Shown here: positions 39,542-61,763 of the stretch, piece by piece
How positions within the stretch are numbered: the stretch's first letter is position 1
How the letters are laid out: every line of letters begins with the position of its first letter
Origin: Fusobacterium gastrosuis
Lineage (GTDB): Bacteria; Fusobacteriota; Fusobacteriia; Fusobacteriales; Fusobacteriaceae
Direction: 5' to 3'
NCBI RefSeq assembly: GCF_900095285.1
Contig: NZ_LT607734.1
Location: 124,001-188,000, forward strand
Length of the DNA stretch: 64,000 nt
Program-made: the position numbers and the translations under genes
Notes under the pieces: generated by a model
The model's input: only the letters and a program-made list of their open reading frames with translations
Databases searched by the model: none
Told to the model about the DNA's origin: nothing

Positions 39542-39727
39542 TTTTTCTCCAATCTATTAAAATAAAAAAATTTATTTATATTATAACATACAGTAAGTGA
39601 TGAAAATTTGACATTTTTTTATTTATTTTAAATATATTTTTATATTGCTTTTTAATATTTATTATATTATAATAAATTAGGAATTAATGGAAAAATGATG
39701 GTTAAAATTAAAAAGAGAGGTGAGGAA

Positions 39728-39964
39728 ATGATAGCCTTAACATTAAATTTTAAAGATGATGAAATTGAAATAATTAATAAATATATGAAAGCAAATAAAA
39801 TAAATCTGGCAGACTTGCCAAGTATTTTCACCAGTTTTTTAATAACTGAAAAATATAATAACGAAACTATTAGAGCTATGGAAGAAGCTGAAAGAATAGC
39901 AAAAGACCCAAATATAAAATCATATTCAAATACTAAAGACCTTTTTAAAGACTTGGAGATTTAA
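39728..39964 (+). CDS. RelB/DUF6290-type antitoxin
   Basis: 78 residues from ATG 39728, directly after GAGAGGTGAGG (the frame is open to 39695). The N-terminal ribbon-helix-helix-like segment (IALTLNFKDDEIEIINKYMKANKINLADL) should bind DNA, and the acidic C-terminal half (AMEEAERIAKDPNIKSYSNTKDLFKDLEI) wraps the toxin in this family. Three bases separate it from the YafQ-type toxin gene. It would repress its own operon together with the toxin. Confidence 0.85.
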   Translation: MIALTLNFKDDEIEIINKYMKANKINLADLPSIFTSFLITEKYNNETIRAMEEAERIAKDPNIKSYSNTKDLFKDLEI

Positions 39965-39967
39965 GAA

Positions 39968-40246
39968 ATGTATGAAATAAAATATACAAGTCAATTTAAA
40001 AAAGATTTAAAGAAAATAAAAAAAGGAAACTATGACATTGAAAAGTTAAAAATAGTTATCGAATTATTAGCAAGTGGAAAATTATTACCCATAGAGTATA
40101 AGGATCATAAATTAATTGGAAATTATAAGGGACATCGTGAATGTCATATAATGCCTGATTGGCTGTTGATTTATTATATTAGTGATAATATTTTAGTTCT
40201 AACACTTTCAAGAACTGGAACACACTCAGAATTATTTAGCAAATAA
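39968..40246 (+). CDS. RelE-superfamily mRNA interferase toxin, YafQ type
   Basis: 92 residues. The family's conserved ending is present: YKDHKLIGNYKGHRECHIMPDWLLIYYISDNILVLTLSRTGTHSELF, with the catalytic-type His/Asp/His of YafQ (HKLIG, RECHIMPDW, THSEL). Ribosome-dependent cleavage of mRNA is the known action of YafQ. Cotranscribed with the antitoxin (three-base gap). Intact, so probably active. This pair is the only clear accessory module in the window. Confidence 0.92.
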   Translation: MYEIKYTSQFKKDLKKIKKGNYDIEKLKIVIELLASGKLLPIEYKDHKLIGNYKGHRECHIMPDWLLIYYISDNILVLTLSRTGTHSELFSK

Positions 40247-40507: not shown

Positions 40508-41212
40508 TTAATTTTTGTCAGGAATCAGCTTATGTCTAAATAAATATTCAGCTAAATATATAAAAGGAGTATCACAAATTGCCACAATAGATTTTATTAC
40601 ATAAGTTGAAATAAAAATTTGTATAAGAACTTCTAAAGGATAAACTCCATAGAAGGCTATAATCGTAAAAATAAAATTATCTAAAAGTTGACTTATTAAA
40701 GTACTTCCATTATTTCTAAGCCATAAATATTTTACACTAGGGAACTTGTTTCTAATAACTTCATAAAGCCACACATCATGAAATTGAGAGATTAAATATG
40801 CAACAACAGAAGCAAAAGCTAACCTTGGCATCAAAGAAAATATTGCTTTAACTCCATTAAACATCTCTAACCCTTCAGGAACATCAAGAGGAGTAAAAGA
40901 AATTGCAACTTGCATAATAGCCGTCATAGAAAATAATGAAAAGAATCCAATTTTTACAGCTGTACTCGCATCCTCTCTTCCATAATTTTCACTTAAAATA
41001 TCAGTTACCAAAAAACCACCTGCGTATAAAATATTTCCCAATGTTGCATCCATACCAAAAAGTCTAACAAGCATTACTACTTGAACATTTGCAAGTATTG
41101 TTGAAATTGGAACCCAAGCATAAAGTCCAGTTTTCCCAAATTTCTTATAGGAAAAAGTTATACACGAAAAGTTAATCATTAACATTAAAAACCATAAAAA
41201 TATATTTCTCAT
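40508..41212 (-). CDS. Queuosine-precursor transporter (YhhQ/QPTR, DUF165 family)
   Basis: 234-residue inner-membrane protein with about six helices. Family markers: NILYAGGFLVTDILSENYGREDA (the conserved Asp-x-x-x-Glu stretch), SQFHDVWLYEVI and LRNNGSTLISQLLDNFIFTIIAF. Family members import preQ0, preQ1 or queuine. Its ATG overlaps the stop of the radical SAM frame by four bases (ATGA-type coupling). The operon is headed by a preQ1-I riboswitch, which supports this substrate class independently of homology. Confidence 0.93.
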   Translation of the reverse strand: MRNIFLWFLMLMINFSCITFSYKKFGKTGLYAWVPISTILANVQVVMLVRLFGMDATLGNILYAGGFLVTDILSENYGREDASTAVKIGFFSLFSMTAIMQVAISFTPLDVPEGLEMFNGVKAIFSLMPRLAFASVVAYLISQFHDVWLYEVIRNKFPSVKYLWLRNNGSTLISQLLDNFIFTIIAFYGVYPLEVLIQIFISTYVIKSIVAICDTPFIYLAEYLFRHKLIPDKN

Positions 41213-41921
41213 TGTTCAAACACTCCTAAGTCTTTATTATCAATTAAAATTTCTATTCTTTCATCATTGAAAAGATATTTCATATCACTTACAAACCATC
41301 TCACAAGTTCATCATCTCTTTCAACCTTTGTACCATTATTTACAAAAACATTTATCGTAATGGCTTTAAAATATTTTAAACCCATTTGAATATCATTTTT
41401 TATCATTTCTTTGGTTTGTCCCTTGGTTGCAATTAAAAGACAAACTGAATAAAGTTTCTCTGATAAAATTTTAAGATTTTTTGAATTAAGTACAAAATTT
41501 TTATTATATACATTAACTCTAAAATCATTGTCGAAAGTTTCTACACCCATTCTAAATCTGATCTCTATTTTTTTATCTTTATTAAAAAAGAAATTATTTC
41601 ATCAAGACGATTGATATAAGTGTAATAAGCTTCAAAGTATAAGATTTCAATATTTTTTTCATAGACAATTTCTCTAATTTTTTCTAAAGTTTTTTGTGGA
41701 ATTTCAAATACGGATCCAGAATTTATAACTTCTAAAATTTTAAATTCACCCGTAATTTCTTTTAAAACTTCTAAATTAATAGAATTAATCTCATTTTCAT
41801 CTATGGAATTATCTTCAATATAATTACAAAAACTGCATTTCCCATAAATACAAGGAAAAGATTTCAAAAGTACAATTTCTCTTGCAAATTTTCCATAAAC
41901 CTTACTGTATCGTATACCCAT
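41209..41921 (-). pseudogene. Radical SAM protein (candidate queuine lyase-like), frameshifted
   Basis: The first frame (41921-41565, 118 residues) starts at ATG with AGGAGG upstream and carries AREIVLLKSFPCIYGKCSFCNYIEDNS, whose C-x5-C-x2-C is a radical SAM cluster site of unusual spacing. The continuation (41550-41209) is in the -1 frame: KKIEIRFRMGVETFDNDFRVNVYN follows without a gap if one A is added to the A7 run just before the first stop. Together about 237 residues. The operon partner is a queuosine-precursor transporter and the leader is a preQ1 riboswitch. The known radical SAM queuine lyase QueL is therefore the best functional guess. Whether the gene is dead or the base missing from the assembly cannot be told here. 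Confidence 0.75.
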
Positions 41922-42035
41922 ATTCCTCCTTTTTTCATAAAATGTTAGAGTTCTATGCTAGTTCTCGAAACCTAAAACCCAATCATTATTTTATTGATTG
42001 ATAATTAAAATTAAATTTATACTTTCCTATATATC

Positions 42036-42064
42036 AAAAAAGCTAGCTAAAAAGTTAGCTAGCT
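42036..42064 (-). terminator. Riboswitch-controlled terminator in the leader
   Basis: A perfect 10-bp stem (42041-42050 with 42055-42064, TTAGCTAGCT) with a four-base loop and five T on the minus strand. It sits between the preQ1 aptamer and the radical SAM gene. Its GCTAGC is also in the aptamer, so the two can pair in an alternative fold. Confidence 0.9.
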
Positions 42065-42111
42065 GAATATGAAATCTATTAGAAACAAAATTTTTATATA
42101 AATTAAAAAAA

Positions 42112-42146
42112 TCTAGTTTTTTAAAGATGGTTCGGCTAGCACATCT
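42112..42146 (-). promoter_or_regulatory. preQ1-I riboswitch aptamer
   Basis: On the minus strand: P1 AGATG/CATCT (5 bp), loop 1 TGCTAG followed by CCGAAC, then the A-rich tail TTAAAAAACTAG, whose CTAG pairs with CTAG of loop 1 to form the H-type pseudoknot. This follows the B. subtilis queC aptamer base by base in layout. A terminator hairpin follows at 42064-42036, so binding of preQ1 would end transcription before the radical SAM/transporter genes. Confidence 0.93.
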
Positions 42147-42167
42147 ATATTTTTATTTTACTAAATA

Positions 42168-42196
42168 AGAATACACTGTAAAAATAAAATTGTCAA
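42168..42196 (-). promoter_or_regulatory. Promoter of the queuosine-salvage operon
   Basis: Minus strand TTGACA (42196-42191), 17 bp, TATTCT (42173-42168). Transcription would start near 42160, about 15 bases before the aptamer. Confidence 0.85.
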
Positions 42197-53813: not shown

Positions 53814-56800
53814 TTATTTTAAGTTAAATTTCCATGAAGCCCCAATACCTGCCATTGCATCTGCACCACCACTTGAATCAGGAGCAACAGAAACTTTAGC
53901 TTGTACTCTGATATTTTCTGTTGGTGCTCCTTGGATACCAACTGCAACAGCTTGGTTTCCTCTATAAGTTCCGATAGCAGCTCCTACAACAGCTTGATTT
54001 ATTCCCATTTCTTGGAATTCAAGAGTAGACATAGCTGCAGAATTTGCAAGACCACTGTTAATTCTTCCATCTAACTTATCAATTCTCTTAGAGTTATTAT
54101 TGATAGCAGCCGCATGATTATTGATAACATCACCTATATCTTGTTTAACTTGATGTAATTGAGAACCATTTACAGCATCTCTTGAAGTTTCAGAAACTTC
54201 TCCATCAGCAATACCAGTTAATTTCTTACCGCCTATATCTAAAGCTCCATCTTTTGAAACATTTATTGTAACTTTTTGATCGTTACCATCTTTATCTTTT
54301 CCACCAACAAGAGTTATTGAAGAAATACCAGCTAAATCTTTAGCAAGTTTTATTTCTAGTTTTCCATTTTCTCCATTTTGAGAAGAAACAACTCCAATAT
54401 TTGCTCCATCAGATAACTTAGTATTATCAGCTTGACCACCAACTATGTTAACTTGTTTGTTAAGTTTAACAGCAGCTTTATCACCAATATCTCCCATAAA
54501 GTTTAGACCATCATTTAATGTTGCAACTTCTTCAGTAGATTTTGTTCCATCAGGATTTTTAGTTTCATAAACTATACGCGTCTTAGATTCTCCATCTTTT
54601 CCATTATTTCCATCAAGTCCTTTTGAACCATCTTTTACAGATATATTTGCACTAGCACCATCTTTTCCATCTGCACCTTTAGGACCTGTTAGACCTATTG
54701 TTCCATCTTTTCCGTTGATGACAACTGATGAACCATCTTTTCCATTTACTCCTATAGTTCCATCAACACCGTCTTTTCCATCGACACCTTTTTCACCAAC
54801 AGTTATATTGTTAGCTTTTAAGTCTTTGTCTAACATAATTTCAAGGTTACCATCTTTATCTATTTTAGTTTTGATGTTTTCTGATGAATATTGTTCATCT
54901 GCTTTAGTTCCGCTACCTTTTATTGTTAATTTTTCTCCAAGATTTTTATGTACTTCTCCAGAATTTCCAGCAAAATTCAATCCTTTTTCAGTTAATTCAT
55001 TTACTGTATTATTTTTAATATCTGTTATTTTGTTAGTTAACCCATCTTCAACATGTTTTAATTGATCTTCAGTTGCTGCTCTTCCACTTATTGGTTGAGT
55101 TTCTCCAACTTTCCATTCTTTGTTAGTTAAACCAGTGATTGTACCATCAGTTCCATTTATTTCAACTTTATCAAATTTTGCATTACCATTAGAAATAGTT
55201 GTTTTATCTCCAACTAATATAGTTCCTGTTTCTCCATCTACTGTGATTTGTTTATCAGTAGCATTTCCTAGAGTTACTTTATCTGATAATTTAATATCAA
55301 AATGTTTTCCACCAGCATCATTTGTAGTTTCTGTTAATATTAAATTAGTATTAGCCTTTCCATCTGCAAGTCCTTTATTTCCTCCATCTACTGATACAGT
55401 TGTATGTTTAGCTGCTTCTGTTTTTACAGAGTATAATTGAGAACCATTTATTGCATCTTTTGAAGTAGAAGAAACCTCTCCTGGTGCAACATTAGTGATT
55501 TTATTTCCACCATTATTAAGACCATTATTAGTTAAAGATACAGTTTTAGCACCATCAGTATTATTATTAATTGTAATCCCACTATTATTAATTACAGTGT
55601 TTCCTGTTGTTATTGTTCCATCATTACCAAGATTAATATTTTTAGCAAGTTTAACTTCTAGTTTACCATCTTTTTCAATCACTCCAATGTTTTTGTCAGT
55701 TAACTTGTCTTTATCTGCTCCACCGATAATTTCTAAAGTTTGATTTAATTTTTTAGAAATAACTGTGTCAGTATCACCTTTGAATTTTAATCCATCATTT
55801 AATGTCGCAACTTCTTCAGTATTTTTTGTACCATCTGGATTTATAGTTTCATAAACTATACGAGTTTTAGATTCTCCATCTTTTCCATTATTTCCATCAA
55901 GCCCTTTTGAACCATCTTTTACTGAAATCGTAGCAGAAGCATCTTTTCCATCTGCACCTTTAGGTCCTGTTAGTCCTATTGAACCATCTTTTCCATTGAT
56001 AACAACAGTTTCTTTACCATTACCATCAGTTACAACAATTTTACCATCTTTACCTTTTTCACCAACAGTAACTTTATTTATATCACTAATTTCTTTATTT
56101 AAAGAATATGTATAAGTTTGCTTTCCATTTTCTATTGTTTGTTTTACTGTTAAATTTTTACCAGCAGCAAAAACAACTTCATCTCCTGGTTTAACCAATG
56201 TTTTAGTTGCAGTTCCATCTAATGTTCCTCCATTAGCAGCTGCATTTGCATTCCATCCAGTATTTCCTAATGTTTTTATTAATGTTTCAGTTGTAACTAA
56301 GCCATCTTTACCATTAGTTCCAGGTTTACCATCAGTACCTTGTGTAATTTCACCTATAGTTACATCATATTTAACAACACCATTATCTGCAATTCTTGCA
56401 GTAGTATAGTTACCATTTGTGAAATCTAAACCTTGGTCTAACATTATTTTTTTTGAAGTTTCTATAGTTGTTCCTCCATTTGATTTATATGTCAATGGTG
56501 TGCTTGTGGCTGCATTTTCTCCATTATAAGTTACAGTAAATGTTTTCTTACCAGTTGTATTTTCTGTTGCTGAACTTACTGAAATAGGATTAGTTCCTAC
56601 TACATCAATTACTTCTTTCGCTGCATCTTGAACTGCTTTTTTTGATACTCCTACTTTATATGTTTCCCCTGCCTCTCCTGCTGGTTTTTTTGAGGCAGTA
56701 TTTATTGTCGCTATATTATCTGTTACAGTTTCATCTAAAACAACTTTTTCAACAGATTTAGCTGCAATATTTTTAACATCCCCTATATTAGCTACATTAG

Positions 56801-59800
56801 TATCAGTATCTCCACCACTTGCTACATTAGTAATTACATTATTTCCCATATTGATAGTTGAACTCGGTGATACTGTAAAGTTCTTAACTGTAGTAGTTCC
56901 TCCCACTGTTAAGTCCCCAGTTGTTGTCACACTTGTAAATGTTGGTGTCATAGATGTTGCTATAGTGAAATCTTTTCCATTTTGAGTTATTTCAATATTT
57001 GAACCATTCATAAATTTAACTGTATCTCCATTATTTACATCTGTAGCTGCTGTATTATTAGCTTGTACCTTAAATGAAGACATTTTAGAATTAATGTCAT
57101 TCTTAACTTTATCTGCTAGTCCTATTTCTAGTTTATCATTACTTGCATTAACTGTTATCTCATCTGTTTTACCATTTACAGCCAATGTTTCTCCAAGCTT
57201 TTTAGCTGCTGTTGTTGTTCCATTATCTCCTGTGAAAATAATTCCTTTGTTATCAACCTTATCTTTAGCATCTACTCCTTTTTGGATATCAGTTTTTGTA
57301 GTATCACTTAAATCTAATTTATAATCTGTTACATCTGTATTTCCAACAGCTGTTTCTTCTCCTTTTGTCATCTTCAATGCATCACTTACACTTACGCTTG
57401 CAGATTTATCCACTGCATTTACTACAAATGGGTCTGCTGTTGTTCCTGTTCCTGTAACTGTTGTATTTTTACCATCTTTCATTGCTGTTTTTGGTAATGC
57501 ATCTGTATTTACTTGTAATTTTTTGTCCACAACTTTAATAGTAGTGTCATCTACATTTACATCATAAGTAATTCCACCATTAGACACTTTCGCTGTTGTC
57601 GCATTTCCATCAACAAAATTAACAGAATCTCCAAATTTAACTTTTGCAACTTCTGTTGTATCGTTTACATTCGCTGTCCAGTATCCGGCATTAACAGCAT
57701 TAGCAACATCTTGAGTAGTAGCTATACCATTTGAAGTTCCAGCATTTATTTTTCCATCTGTTGTTGTATCAAAAGAACCTTTCTTTATATCCACAGTAAA
57801 TGTTTTCTTACCAGTTGTATTATCTGTTGCTGAACTTACTGAAATAGGATTAGTTCCTACTACATCAATTACTTCTTTCGCTGCATCTTGAACTGCTTTT
57901 TTTGATACTCCTACTTTATATGTTTCTCCTGCAGTTCCTGCTGCAGTTCCTGATAAAGTTGATACTGTTGCTATATTGTCTATTACAGTTTCATCTTTTA
58001 TCACTTTTTCAACAGATTTAGCTGCAATATTTTTAACATCCCCTATATTAGCTACATTAGTATCAGTATCTCCACCACTTGCTACATTAGTAATTACATT
58101 ATTTCCCATATTGATAGTTGAACTCGGTGATACTGTAAAGTTCTTAACTGTAGTAGTTCCTCCCACTGTTAAGTCCCCAGTTGTTGTCACACTTGTAAAT
58201 GTTGGTGTCATAGATGTTGCTATAGTGAAATCTTTTCCATTTTGAGTTATTTCAATATTTGAACCATTCATAAATTTAACTGTATCTCCATTATTTACAT
58301 CTGTAGCTGCTGTATTATTAGCTTGTACCTTAAATGAAGACATTTTAGAATTAATGTCATTCTTAACTTTATCTGCTAGTCCTATTTCTAGTTTATCATT
58401 ACTTGCATTAACTGTTATCTCATCTGTTTTACCATTTACAGCCAATGTTTCTCCAAGCTTTTTAGCTGCTGTTGTTGTTCCATTATCTCCTGTGAAAATA
58501 ATTCCTTTGTTATCAACCTTATCTTTAGCATCTACTCCTTTTTGGATATCAGTTTTTGTAGTATCACTTAAATCTAATTTATAATCTGTTACATCTGTAT
58601 TTCCAACAGCTGTTTCTTCTCCTTTTGTCATCTTCAATGCATCACTTACACTTACGCTTGCAGATTTATCCACTGCATTTACTACAAATGGGTCTGCTGT
58701 TGTTCCTGTTCCTGTAACTGTTGTATTTTTACCATCTTTCATTGCTGTTTTTGGTAATGCATCTGTATTTACTTGTAATTTTTTGTCCACAACTTTAATA
58801 GTAGTGTCATCTACATTTACATCATAAGTAATTCCACCATTAGACACTTTCGCTGTTGTCGCATTTCCATCAACAAAATTAACAGAATCTCCAAATTTAA
58901 CTTTTGCAACTTCTGTTGTATCGTTTACATTCGCTGTCCAATATCCTTCATTAACTGCTTTTGCCACATCACTTACAGTTGCTACTCCATCTGTTGTTGG
59001 ATTTTCTTTTACTTTTCCACCATCTGCTTCAAAAGTACCTTTTGTAACTCCAACTTTATAGTTTATTATATTGTTACCATCAGCTGTTCCATCGCCTGTT
59101 ACAGTAACTAATGTATCTCCATCAGCTTTTTCAACCGTTGTCTTGTAAGCATCTATTGTATATTTTCTGCTTCCATCTGCATTTGTCGCTTCATTTACAG
59201 AAGATATATTTTTTCCAGCTACTACTTCAGTCTTTGCAGCTATAATAGCATCATGAATAGTATTTTTATTAGTATCACCAATATTTGTCATAGTGAATTT
59301 TCCAGTGTCATCCCCTACCGTTTTAGTGTAATCTGCATTTCCACCTAATTTTCCTTTTAGAGATTCTGCCACATTTCCTACAACTTTATTAGTCATATAT
59401 AATTGTGAACCATTTATTGCATCTGTTGAAGTAGAAGAAATTTCTCCAGCTGCTACATTCATTATTCTTCTTTCAAGCCTTGCTGAACCTACTGTAACTG
59501 CTCCTGCAGCTGTTGCTCCAGCAAATCCACCATAAGTAATTTCATTTACAGTTGCTTTGTTTACTGTTCCAGTATCTCCAGCTGTTGTTGTTGTTCCTAC
59601 TGTTCCTTCTTTGTCTAAGTTTTTAGTTCCAATAGTTGCACCTTCAGCTATTGTACTATCATCTCCTAAGTATACCGAATTTGCTACTGTAGCAAATACT
59701 GATTTATCTGCTTTCACTCCAATTCCACTACCTAAAACATAAGTATTTGAAGTATTTATATAGTTATTATTTCCTATTGCTTTTGAATTTTCAACAGTTG

Positions 59801-61763
59801 CTGTGTCAGTCAACCCACTAGCAGTTTGTAATTTCCCATTTGTATCATAAGTTGCAGTTGCACCTATTTGGTTGTTATTTCCTAATACAGATACATTTGT
59901 TGATGTAGATCCCACTGCATTGTCATTTCCAAATGTATATGAACCTGCCCCTGATACTATTGATGGATCACCAAATGCTCCTGAATTAGCTCCACTTACA
60001 ATATTTCCTGTCCCAATAGATATTGAATTTTCTCCTGTTGCTGTTGCTCCATTACCTATTGCTATTGTATTTGGTTTTGAATTATTTAATTCTGCTATTT
60101 CATCATCTAACGCTTTTCTAGCAGTATCTACTGCTGCTTTAGCAGCTCTTGCTTCTGATGAATCAGCACCTTTTGATCCTACTGCACCCATATATGCTGC
60201 TTCTTTTTGAAATAAATCGTTCCATAAATCATTTACTGCTTTTGCTCCACCTTCAGCTCCTGCACTTGCATTTGTTCCTATTGCTATTCCATTTTGACCT
60301 GCTGCAATACTTTGATATCCCAAAGATAATGTATTTTTTGATACAGCTACAGCTTGACGAGCAAATGCTCCTGAATATTCTCCGAAAGCAGTAGTTATAT
60401 GTCCAACTGCTGCTGAAGATGTCCCTTCTGCTAAAGATTTATATCCTTGTGCAATAGCAGCTCCACCAGTTGCTTTAGAACGATTTCCTACTGCTATTGA
60501 AGCAATCCCACTTGCATTTGCTAAACGACCTAAAGCTGTTGTATGATTTGCTCCTGCATTTGCATTTACTCCTAAAGCAACAGCTTCACTTCCTACTGCT
60601 GTTGCAGATGAACCTACTGCAACAGAATGATCAGCTAAAACATTTGCTGAATATCCTACTGCTGTCCCATTTGCTGCTGCAACTTTTGATTTTGCTCCAA
60701 TTGATGTAGACAGACTATGATTAAATTCTTCTCCTGCTATTGCTTCAAATCCTAAGGCTGTATTGTATTGCCCCATTGATTTACTATCTGCCCCTATTGC
60801 AATGGCTTTTAATGGAATCTCAAAAACATTAGTTGATTTTTCTGTTAAGGTAACTTTTGCATTTCTACCAATAGCTATTGTATCTTCTGACTCTGCCTTT
60901 GCTTGTTTTCCTATTGCTATTGCATTATTTCCACTTGGTGGATTTGATATCCCTGCTTTATAATATCCTGCTGAAGCTTCATTTCCTATTGCTACCGTAC
61001 CTTCGCTTATTGCTTTAGCTGTGAACCCCGTAGCTACTGAATTAATCCCACTTGCAACAGCTCTAGCTCCAGTTGCTGTAGCTTTTTCTACTGCTTTAGC
61101 TTGAGAACCTAGAGCAGTTCCATCTCTTCCAGTAACATTTGCTTTATAACCTAAGGCTGTCCCTTCATCACCTGTAACACTCGTTTCATAACCTATTGCC
61201 GAACTTCCCCAACTATTAGCAATTGCTTTTCCTCCTAAAGCATTTGAATAATCACCTTTGGCTTTGGCTTGAACTCCAGTTGCAGTAGACCATTGAGCTG
61301 AAACTTGAGAATCTTGCCCATTGGCCATTGAAGCATATCCCATTGCTTTAGCATTCTGTCCTACTGCAGTTGAATATATTACAGCTTCAGCAGAATTTCC
61401 TATTGCAGTTGCTTGTTGACCTTTTGTAGTAGCTGAAGCACCTACTGCAGTAGAATTACTCCCAGGGCTATTACCATCAGCACTATATAAAGCTTTTGCA
61501 TCATCTCCTATGGCAACACTATTTGAGTGAGTAGTAGAAGAGCCTTTTCCTATTGCCATTTGGTTCCCTATTATCACGCTAGGAGTTCCATCAGCAATTG
61601 TTCCATAACTTGGTGTATAAGTAGCCGCTTCCAATGTACTTACACTCATAAATAACCCTGCAATCCCACATATTAGATATTTTACTGTTGTTTCAGCATT
61701 TATACTAATACGCCTTTTTAAAAACCTTTTTAATTCCCTTTCAAAATCTGATAACTTATTCAT
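53814..61763 (-). CDS. Large trimeric autotransporter adhesin (YadA/Hia type, type Vc)
   Basis: 2649 residues. An extended N terminus (MNKLSDFERELKRFLKRRIS) precedes the signal helix ending VSTLEA. The head (about 60-640) is built of YadA-like repeats of the AxAIGxxAxA kind. Necks with DAINGSQL occur near 774, 2101 and 2529. The stalk contains two copies of a 420-residue unit (part of it identical, about 941-1253 and 1361-1673) and collagen-like Gly-x-y stretches (near 1818, 1930 and 2340). The last ~90 residues are the YadA anchor (FQEMGINQAVVGAAIGTYRGN ... GIGASWKFNLK), which forms the 12-strand barrel as a trimer. Surface adhesin; binding partner unknown. CbpF of F. nucleatum is a smaller relative by type. 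The leader is about 250 bases. Confidence 0.93.
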   Translation of the reverse strand: MNKLSDFERELKRFLKRRISINAETTVKYLICGIAGLFMSVSTLEAATYTPSYGTIADGTPSVIIGNQMAIGKGSSTTHSNSVAIGDDAKALYSADGNSPGSNSTAVGASATTKGQQATAIGNSAEAVIYSTAVGQNAKAMGYASMANGQDSQVSAQWSTATGVQAKAKGDYSNALGGKAIANSWGSSAIGYETSVTGDEGTALGYKANVTGRDGTALGSQAKAVEKATATGARAVASGINSVATGFTAKAISEGTVAIGNEASAGYYKAGISNPPSGNNAIAIGKQAKAESEDTIAIGRNAKVTLTEKSTNVFEIPLKAIAIGADSKSMGQYNTALGFEAIAGEEFNHSLSTSIGAKSKVAAANGTAVGYSANVLADHSVAVGSSATAVGSEAVALGVNANAGANHTTALGRLANASGIASIAVGNRSKATGGAAIAQGYKSLAEGTSSAAVGHITTAFGEYSGAFARQAVAVSKNTLSLGYQSIAAGQNGIAIGTNASAGAEGGAKAVNDLWNDLFQKEAAYMGAVGSKGADSSEARAAKAAVDTARKALDDEIAELNNSKPNTIAIGNGATATGENSISIGTGNIVSGANSGAFGDPSIVSGAGSYTFGNDNAVGSTSTNVSVLGNNNQIGATATYDTNGKLQTASGLTDTATVENSKAIGNNNYINTSNTYVLGSGIGVKADKSVFATVANSVYLGDDSTIAEGATIGTKNLDKEGTVGTTTTAGDTGTVNKATVNEITYGGFAGATAAGAVTVGSARLERRIMNVAAGEISSTSTDAINGSQLYMTNKVVGNVAESLKGKLGGNADYTKTVGDDTGKFTMTNIGDTNKNTIHDAIIAAKTEVVAGKNISSVNEATNADGSRKYTIDAYKTTVEKADGDTLVTVTGDGTADGNNIINYKVGVTKGTFEADGGKVKENPTTDGVATVSDVAKAVNEGYWTANVNDTTEVAKVKFGDSVNFVDGNATTAKVSNGGITYDVNVDDTTIKVVDKKLQVNTDALPKTAMKDGKNTTVTGTGTTADPFVVNAVDKSASVSVSDALKMTKGEETAVGNTDVTDYKLDLSDTTKTDIQKGVDAKDKVDNKGIIFTGDNGTTTAAKKLGETLAVNGKTDEITVNASNDKLEIGLADKVKNDINSKMSSFKVQANNTAATDVNNGDTVKFMNGSNIEITQNGKDFTIATSMTPTFTSVTTTGDLTVGGTTTVKNFTVSPSSTINMGNNVITNVASGGDTDTNVANIGDVKNIAAKSVEKVIKDETVIDNIATVSTLSGTAAGTAGETYKVGVSKKAVQDAAKEVIDVVGTNPISVSSATDNTTGKKTFTVDIKKGSFDTTTDGKINAGTSNGIATTQDVANAVNAGYWTANVNDTTEVAKVKFGDSVNFVDGNATTAKVSNGGITYDVNVDDTTIKVVDKKLQVNTDALPKTAMKDGKNTTVTGTGTTADPFVVNAVDKSASVSVSDALKMTKGEETAVGNTDVTDYKLDLSDTTKTDIQKGVDAKDKVDNKGIIFTGDNGTTTAAKKLGETLAVNGKTDEITVNASNDKLEIGLADKVKNDINSKMSSFKVQANNTAATDVNNGDTVKFMNGSNIEITQNGKDFTIATSMTPTFTSVTTTGDLTVGGTTTVKNFTVSPSSTINMGNNVITNVASGGDTDTNVANIGDVKNIAAKSVEKVVLDETVTDNIATINTASKKPAGEAGETYKVGVSKKAVQDAAKEVIDVVGTNPISVSSATENTTGKKTFTVTYNGENAATSTPLTYKSNGGTTIETSKKIMLDQGLDFTNGNYTTARIADNGVVKYDVTIGEITQGTDGKPGTNGKDGLVTTETLIKTLGNTGWNANAAANGGTLDGTATKTLVKPGDEVVFAAGKNLTVKQTIENGKQTYTYSLNKEISDINKVTVGEKGKDGKIVVTDGNGKETVVINGKDGSIGLTGPKGADGKDASATISVKDGSKGLDGNNGKDGESKTRIVYETINPDGTKNTEEVATLNDGLKFKGDTDTVISKKLNQTLEIIGGADKDKLTDKNIGVIEKDGKLEVKLAKNINLGNDGTITTGNTVINNSGITINNNTDGAKTVSLTNNGLNNGGNKITNVAPGEVSSTSKDAINGSQLYSVKTEAAKHTTVSVDGGNKGLADGKANTNLILTETTNDAGGKHFDIKLSDKVTLGNATDKQITVDGETGTILVGDKTTISNGNAKFDKVEINGTDGTITGLTNKEWKVGETQPISGRAATEDQLKHVEDGLTNKITDIKNNTVNELTEKGLNFAGNSGEVHKNLGEKLTIKGSGTKADEQYSSENIKTKIDKDGNLEIMLDKDLKANNITVGEKGVDGKDGVDGTIGVNGKDGSSVVINGKDGTIGLTGPKGADGKDGASANISVKDGSKGLDGNNGKDGESKTRIVYETKNPDGTKSTEEVATLNDGLNFMGDIGDKAAVKLNKQVNIVGGQADNTKLSDGANIGVVSSQNGENGKLEIKLAKDLAGISSITLVGGKDKDGNDQKVTINVSKDGALDIGGKKLTGIADGEVSETSRDAVNGSQLHQVKQDIGDVINNHAAAINNNSKRIDKLDGRINSGLANSAAMSTLEFQEMGINQAVVGAAIGTYRGNQAVAVGIQGAPTENIRVQAKVSVAPDSSGGADAMAGIGASWKFNLK
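56743..57680. repeat. 938-bp direct repeat, copy A, inside the adhesin gene
   Basis: Identical base for base to 58003-58940, including synonymous positions. The full unit with diverged edges is 1260 bp (420 codons, in frame). Confidence 0.95.
58003..58940. repeat. 938-bp direct repeat, copy B, inside the adhesin gene
   Basis: Second copy, offset exactly 1260 bp. It begins in ACTTTTTC and ends at TGTCCA, where copy A continues with G and copy B with A. Confidence 0.95.

What the first reader, a model, noticed from the sequence alone, without database searches (positions are those of the whole stretch)
40508..42196. preQ1-I riboswitch operon for queuine salvage with a radical SAM gene
The minus strand shows, in order: a consensus promoter, a preQ1-I aptamer (P1 AGATG/CATCT, TGCTAG loop, A-rich tail with CTAG), an intrinsic terminator whose GCTAGC can also pair with the aptamer's GCTAGC, a frameshifted radical SAM gene and a YhhQ/QPTR-type transporter. 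The riboswitch ties the radical SAM gene to queuosine. In C. difficile a radical SAM queuine lyase (QueL) works in salvage with such a transporter, so this may be the fusobacterial equivalent, possibly a distinct clade. No de novo Q genes are seen in the window.
Basis: partly seen in the sequence, partly recalled or inferred. Interest (0 to 1): 0.75.

Follow-up and report, generated by a model that had tools for sequence, protein, structure and literature searches.

The report
preQ1 riboswitch operon for queuine salvage
A Fusobacterium-family genome carries an RNA switch for a precursor of the tRNA base queuosine in front of genes for recycling queuine; the layout is a variant of one known from Clostridioides difficile, and here the recycling-enzyme gene appears broken.

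Summary
The radical SAM gene is QueL by sequence: its intact genus orthologue matches the solved queuine lyase 6P78 at E 3.1e-60. The next gene is a queuosine-precursor transporter, QPTR. Rfam misses the leader element in the window, but a model built from other fusobacterial genera finds it as the only strong match (34.9 bits, next 10.8). In 61 genomes of the family all 41 strong matches of the full model precede Q genes. A terminator follows, whose 5' arm can pair with the aptamer loop. The genome has TGT, QueA and QueH but no QueC-grade, QueF, QueT or nucleoside-hydrolase match: it depends on salvage. A preQ1-I switch before queK-qrtT-queL in C. difficile is in print; here QPTR replaces the ECF transporter and queK is absent. 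Fusobacterial QueL forms its own clade. The window's queL has one frameshift (46 of 46 relatives intact): recent decay or assembly error. Published RNA-seq shows a neighbouring 'queuosine precursor transporter' and 'radical SAM' gene of F. nucleatum falling about 20-fold beside Porphyromonas gingivalis, as such a switch could predict.

The parts
42168..42196 (-). promoter-like site TTGACA-17-TATTCT
   Evidence: 10 of 12 matches; number of sites not above shuffles; like site in G016 seen by eye
42111..42146 (-). preQ1-I aptamer, AC before the 3' strand of P1 (type II signature): P1 42142-42146 with 42125-42129; possible P2 CTAG 42136-42139 with CTAG 42113-42116
   Evidence: 47.6 bits; 34.9 bits with the genus left out
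42058..42067 (-). strand that can pair with the aptamer loop (antiterminator), overlapping the 5' arm of the terminator
   Evidence: nine pairs, one mismatch; nine perfect pairs in G016
42036..42064 (-). intrinsic terminator (stem 42064-42041) with T run
41925..41930 (-). Shine-Dalgarno AGGAGG before queL
   Evidence: read
41565..41921 (-). queL, first part (118 aa), holds the C-x4-C-x2-C motif
41209..41550 (-). queL, second part (113 aa), after one frameshift
40508..41212 (-). QPTR (YhhQ/COG1738-type) queuosine precursor transporter, start overlapping the end of queL

Best explanation
A preQ1-I riboswitch that works by transcription attenuation controls a two-gene salvage operon, queL-QPTR. 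QPTR brings in queuine and/or preQ1 (inferred). QueL, a radical SAM lyase, turns queuine into preQ1 (inferred from homology). TGT puts preQ1 into tRNA and QueA and QueH complete queuosine (genes found). With little preQ1, the aptamer loop pairs with the terminator's 5' arm and transcription goes on; with preQ1 bound, the loop is held in the pseudoknot, the terminator forms and the operon is shut (supported by sequence; binding not shown). In this genome queL is split by one frameshift, either recent decay or an assembly error; if real, this strain can only use preQ1 itself.
For: QueL: 6P78 'Queuine lyase' E 3.1e-60 for the intact orthologue, same C-x4-C-x2-C. QPTR. Riboswitch: genus-left-out model 34.9 bits; full model, 41 matches of 38.8 bits or more in 61 genomes, next 28.9, all 41 before Q genes by position; Rfam's own model over its cut-off at the same place in relatives; P1 paired in 16 of 16 distinct rows with two compensatory pairs; 29 non-fusobacterial queL loci of the 80 fetched have an upstream match of 25 bits or more. 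Switch: terminators in the window and in all 11 relatives' leaders printed; loop/arm helix. Pathway: TGT with GGLAVG, QueA, QueH present; no QueC-grade, QueF, QueT or IU_nuc_hydro match. Expression: both annotated genes fall about 20-fold together in F. nucleatum beside P. gingivalis (PMC9848294).
Against: No Rfam hit in the window. 14 of 47 genomes with queL have no strong riboswitch match at the queL operon. In the window the loop/arm helix has a mismatch and, once the terminator is complete, is weaker than it (-16.3 against -20.5 kcal/mol). I did not model the switch of G015, whose terminator differs. 15 of 61 genomes have both QueL and a QueC-grade match, so salvage is not always the only route. 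This queL copy is broken. Rows used to build the full model are among its 41 matches. The RNA-seq genes are matched by annotation and adjacency only.
Confidence: 0.88

Rival explanations
1. The operon is in real decay here: queL is a true pseudogene and only the riboswitch and QPTR work, giving uptake of preQ1 alone.
For: One frameshift in a single-contig genome; 46 of 46 relatives with a match are unbroken; G049 and G050 have QPTR but neither QueL nor a QueC-grade match, so such a state may exist in the family.
Against: Only one break; dN/dS against G016 about 0.09 and 0.14 for the two parts and 0.09 for QPTR (dS above 1, so rough); break lies between homopolymer runs, a usual place for sequencing error.
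Confidence: 0.45
2. The frameshift is an assembly or sequencing error and the operon is fully working.
For: Same facts: single break beside homopolymer runs, low dN/dS in both parts, TGT, QueA and QueH unbroken.
Against: Neighbouring long genes of the window have open frames, for example 2649 aa at 53814-61763, so the assembly is not obviously error-rich.
Confidence: 0.5
3. The leader element is a chance motif and the operon is not under a preQ1 switch.
For: No Rfam hit in the window; the bare motif turns up in 10 of 60 random windows.
Against:: conserved in place, structure and tail across genera and outside the family.
Confidence: 0.02
4. The F. nucleatum co-culture response reflects a general nutrient shift, not Q-precursor supply acting on the riboswitch.
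For: Purine, pyrimidine, riboflavin and biotin genes fell too (PMC9848294).
Against: The two genes are third and fourth in the sorted table of falls, and a dedicated preQ1 switch is known in F. nucleatum (PMC3280964, passages).
Confidence: 0.5

Closest known systems
C. difficile preQ1-I riboswitch before queK-qrtT-queL (PMC11477304, passages read; primary paper Yuan 2019 not held)
   Same: preQ1-I switch, QueL, a transporter, salvage-only organism
   Different: QPTR in place of the ECF-type QrtT, no queK in the operon, gene order queL-QPTR, separate QueL clade
F. nucleatum preQ1-I riboswitch studied as RNA (passages in PMC3963873, PMC8162808, PMC3280964)
   Same: family, class, transcriptional control
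   Different: those passages do not name the genes it controls; sequence of the window's element differs in the loop from most relatives
Queuine lyase of PDB 6P78 (organism, Clostridium spiroforme, recalled, not from a call)
   Same: sequence over residues 4-228 of the orthologue, C-x4-C-x2-C motif
   Different: 50% identity to the orthologue, other side of the QueL tree; fusobacterial activity untested
QPTR/YhhQ/COG1738 transporters under preQ1 riboswitches (PMC5372724, passages)
   Same: transporter family, control by preQ1 riboswitches
   Different: paired with queL; substrate here unknown

Membership tests
preQ1-I riboswitch | P1 stem, loop and A-rich tail of an H-type pseudoknot | tested here: met
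   possible P2 CTAG/CTAG read
preQ1-I riboswitch | match to Rfam RF00522 | tested here: not met
   window not reported; relatives at the same place reported, 5 of 61 genomes over the cut-off, four of these before queL
preQ1-I riboswitch | AC before the 3' strand of P1 (type II) | tested here: met
   criterion from PMC11625349 section 4
preQ1-I riboswitch | binds preQ1 and changes expression | not testable with these tools
   needs RNA
QueL | full-length sequence match to characterised queuine lyase | tested here: met
   for the intact G016 orthologue, E 3.1e-60; window parts 82% and 75% identical to it
QueL | C-x4-C-x2-C cluster motif | tested here: met
QueL | one open reading frame | tested here: not met
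   split in the window
QueL | makes preQ1 from queuine | not testable with these tools
   needs assay
QPTR/YhhQ | match over the curated cut-off | tested here: met
   TIGR00697 216.3 bits, cut-off 50.95; PF02592 166.3 bits, cut-off 27.2
C. difficile-type operon | queK present | tested here: not met
   no PF01156 match in the genome
C. difficile-type operon | ECF-type substrate protein in the operon | tested here: not met
   operon holds QPTR; no QueT in the genome; PF12822, to which a QrtT-like example belongs, was not searched genome-wide

The most novel reading that the evidence does not exclude
The fusobacterial queL-QPTR riboswitch reads out queuosine precursors released by neighbouring bacteria: P. 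gingivalis, or medium that it conditions, supplies preQ1 or queuine across a membrane and shuts the operon, making it a direct reporter of the Q-precursor exchange proposed for host-associated communities.
Probability: 0.35. Interest if true: 0.65.

Novelty: new variant of a known kind. Interest (0 to 1): 0.42.

Why it matters
By gene content it places many Fusobacteriaceae among organisms that can recycle queuine, with a transporter type other than the ECF one of C. difficile. It offers a regulatory reason for a strong, uninterpreted response in published F. nucleatum co-culture data, and so makes exchange of Q precursors between plaque bacteria testable. Within one family the switch occurs with the type I signature (20 elements) and with AC (20 elements) on nearly the same P1 and tail, a natural comparison of two-ligand and one-ligand sensing.

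Tried and rejected
Rfam on the window was negative and was replaced by models from relatives. Pfam and NCBIfam gave no family above its cut-off for queL, so identification rests on 6P78. A strict perfect-P1 scan found the element only in the three genus members and chance-like hits elsewhere; covariance models did better. An unrelated radical SAM enzyme was rejected. A de novo pathway in this genome was rejected on QueC and QueF; QueD and QueE were not searched genome-wide. A queuine-inserting TGT was rejected on the GGLAVG pocket (criterion in a passage of PMC10723273). Structure prediction was not run, since sequence was decisive.

Rows dropped: the QueL tree took one ORF of 200 aa or more per locus, 71 rows from the 78 loci of the cluster, plus 7 family rows and 6P78. 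One search was given 42 elements: 20 TC, 20 AC, one TT (G045, weak), one unparsed (G006, weak); G023's element was not given.

Literature: Rieder 2010 and Yuan 2019 are not held. The searches listed no paper whose title or shown abstract describes a fusobacterial queL operon; I read passages of only some of the listed papers, and Yuan 2019 may mention it.

Full report
What is there. On the minus strand of 40508-42196 lie a promoter-like site, a 36-nt aptamer-like element (42146-42111), an intrinsic terminator (42064-42041 and T run), a Shine-Dalgarno sequence, a radical SAM gene split by one frameshift (41921-41565 and 41550-41209) and a transporter gene (41212-40508) whose start overlaps the end of the radical SAM gene.

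The radical SAM gene is QueL. The window lies in a 1.82-Mb single-contig genome. In its family 47 of 61 genomes have the gene, this one included, and the other 46 are unbroken over the full length. The intact orthologue of the same genus (G016) matches PDB 6P78, 'Queuine lyase', at E 3.1e-60, with the same C-x4-C-x2-C motif. Pfam and NCBIfam have no model that recognises it over a cut-off. In the genome collection 362 stretches encode relatives, of which the best 80 were kept. A tree of 79 rows puts 27 fusobacterial and 4 pseudomonad rows on one side and 48 rows (Bacillota, 6P78 and two rows without a phylum label) on the other, support 100/99, midpoint root for drawing only. So 'distinct clade' is borne out.

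The transporter is QPTR: TIGR00697 216.3 bits, PF02592 166.3 bits. In the 80 loci QPTR lies near queL in 21, an ECF substrate protein in 37, a QueT protein in 11 and a QueK-like hydrolase in 29 (one example of each tested with Pfam, the ECF one at 30.0 bits just under its cut-off of 30.7). By record title the QPTR loci are 15 fusobacterial, 5 pseudomonad and 1 Bacillota; six fusobacterial loci show no transporter of these kinds beside queL.

The riboswitch. Rfam does not report preQ1 in the window, but RF00522 calls elements before queL, QPTR or other Q genes in other genera, 5 of 61 genomes over the cut-off: four before queL-QPTR, and G046 before queF-queC. They share P1 and the A-rich CTAG tail with the window. 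P1 pairs in 16 of 16 distinct rows; two of its five pairs have changes on both sides, three never vary. A model built without the window's genus scores the window element 34.9 bits, E 1.8e-7, next place 10.8, and the genus members 34.3 to 34.9. The model with all 16 rows gives 41 matches of 38.8 bits or more in 61 genomes, one per genome, next 28.9. By position 33 of the 41 precede queL operons (26 directly before queL, 7 as switch-QPTR-queL), 6 precede a QPTR away from queL, one precedes queF-queC (G046) and one a queK-like gene with QPTR (G048; queK-like by resemblance of a 156-aa frame, not searched). Rows that built the model are among these. In the 80 fetched loci, 42 have a match of 25 bits or more upstream of queL, 29 of them not fusobacterial. 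Of 47 queL genomes in the family, 14 have no strong match at the queL operon.

How it works. All 11 relatives' leaders that I printed have a stem and T run after the element. In G016 nine bases of the aptamer loop pair perfectly with a strand overlapping the terminator's 5' arm, and this is the best fold; in the window the like helix has nine pairs and one mismatch and is the best fold until the terminator's 3' arm is made (-16.3 kcal/mol), after which the terminator fold is better (-20.5). This is the layout of a transcriptional off-switch. G015 has another terminator, whose switch I did not model. Ligand binding is inferred.

Metabolic setting. The genome has unbroken TGT, QueA and QueH and the TGT pocket GGLAVG, the E. 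coli-like form. Its best QueC match is 43.9 bits in a 360-aa frame, whereas 25 of 61 genomes have matches of 195 to 289 bits. QueF, QueT and IU_nuc_hydro give no match. So preQ1 must come from outside or from queuine through QueL. In the family 32 of 61 genomes have QueL without a QueC-grade match, 15 have both, 10 only QueC, 4 neither: the routes are partly complementary, not exclusive.

The break. One frameshift lies near codon 115 between short homopolymer runs. dN/dS against G016 is about 0.09 and 0.14 for the two parts and 0.09 for QPTR (dS above 1, so rough). The gene was kept until recently; decay just begun and assembly error fit about equally.

What is known. A preQ1-I riboswitch before queK-qrtT-queL in C. 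difficile is in print (PMC11477304, passages). The F. nucleatum preQ1-I riboswitch has been studied as RNA (passages). Fusobacterium is named as a Q-precursor consumer in plaque (PMC11130926, passage). I did not find the fusobacterial riboswitch-queL-QPTR operon described in the searches; Yuan 2019 could not be read, so it may be there.

An unplanned link. In PMC9848294 (part 1 of 2 of section 12, abstract and passages seen) F. nucleatum TDC 100, grown across a 0.4-um membrane from P. gingivalis, lowered a 'queuosine precursor transporter' (CS401_RS07440, log2 -4.47) and a 'radical SAM protein' with the next locus tag (CS401_RS07445, -4.34), the third and fourth rows of the sorted table of falls; the paper counts 87 lowered genes. 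The word riboswitch does not occur in its text and queuosine occurs once, in the table. If these are queL-QPTR, as annotation and neighbouring tags suggest (no sequence compared), precursor supplied by P. gingivalis acting on this switch would explain it. A general nutrient shift is the rival, since purine, pyrimidine, riboflavin and biotin genes fell too. Whether that P. gingivalis strain makes preQ1 was not checked.

Type swap. Of 42 family elements parsed, 20 carry TC before P1's 3' strand (genera g2, g3, g11, g13, g14) and 20 carry AC (g1, g4, g5, the window's genus included), on nearly the same P1 and tail; two weak ones fit neither. In PMC11625349 (section 4 read) UC marks type I, which binds two preQ1, and AC marks types II and III, which bind one; 12 of the 20 AC elements also have UU after P1's 5' strand, a feature given there for types I and III.

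Noticed in passing
window 39695-40246 (+): Likely type II toxin-antitoxin pair: YafQ-family toxin (PF15738 E 6.7e-37) after an 89-aa frame with no Pfam match at 0.001.
   Followed up: partly
window 53814-61763 (-): 2649-aa frame with YadA head, stalk and anchor domains: a giant trimeric autotransporter adhesin.
   Followed up: partly
L102, L104, L110, L123, L143: QPTR-queL pairs in MAG records labelled Neisseriales, Burkholderiales and Gammaproteobacteria; four of the five sit beside Leptotrichiaceae in the QueL tree, the fifth was not in it; transfer or mis-binned contigs.
   Followed up: partly
L166 (G046:C67) and L059 (G048:C56): The same element stands before queF-queC in G046 and before a queK-like frame with QPTR in G048: one switch, different Q genes.
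   Followed up: partly
42 family elements: TC (type I signature) and AC (type II/III signature) forms divide by genus within one family on nearly the same P1 and tail.
   Followed up: partly
G026:C1:1138246-1138739: QPTR beside queL in G026 falls into two pieces with a stop, another sign of wear in this operon.
   Followed up: no
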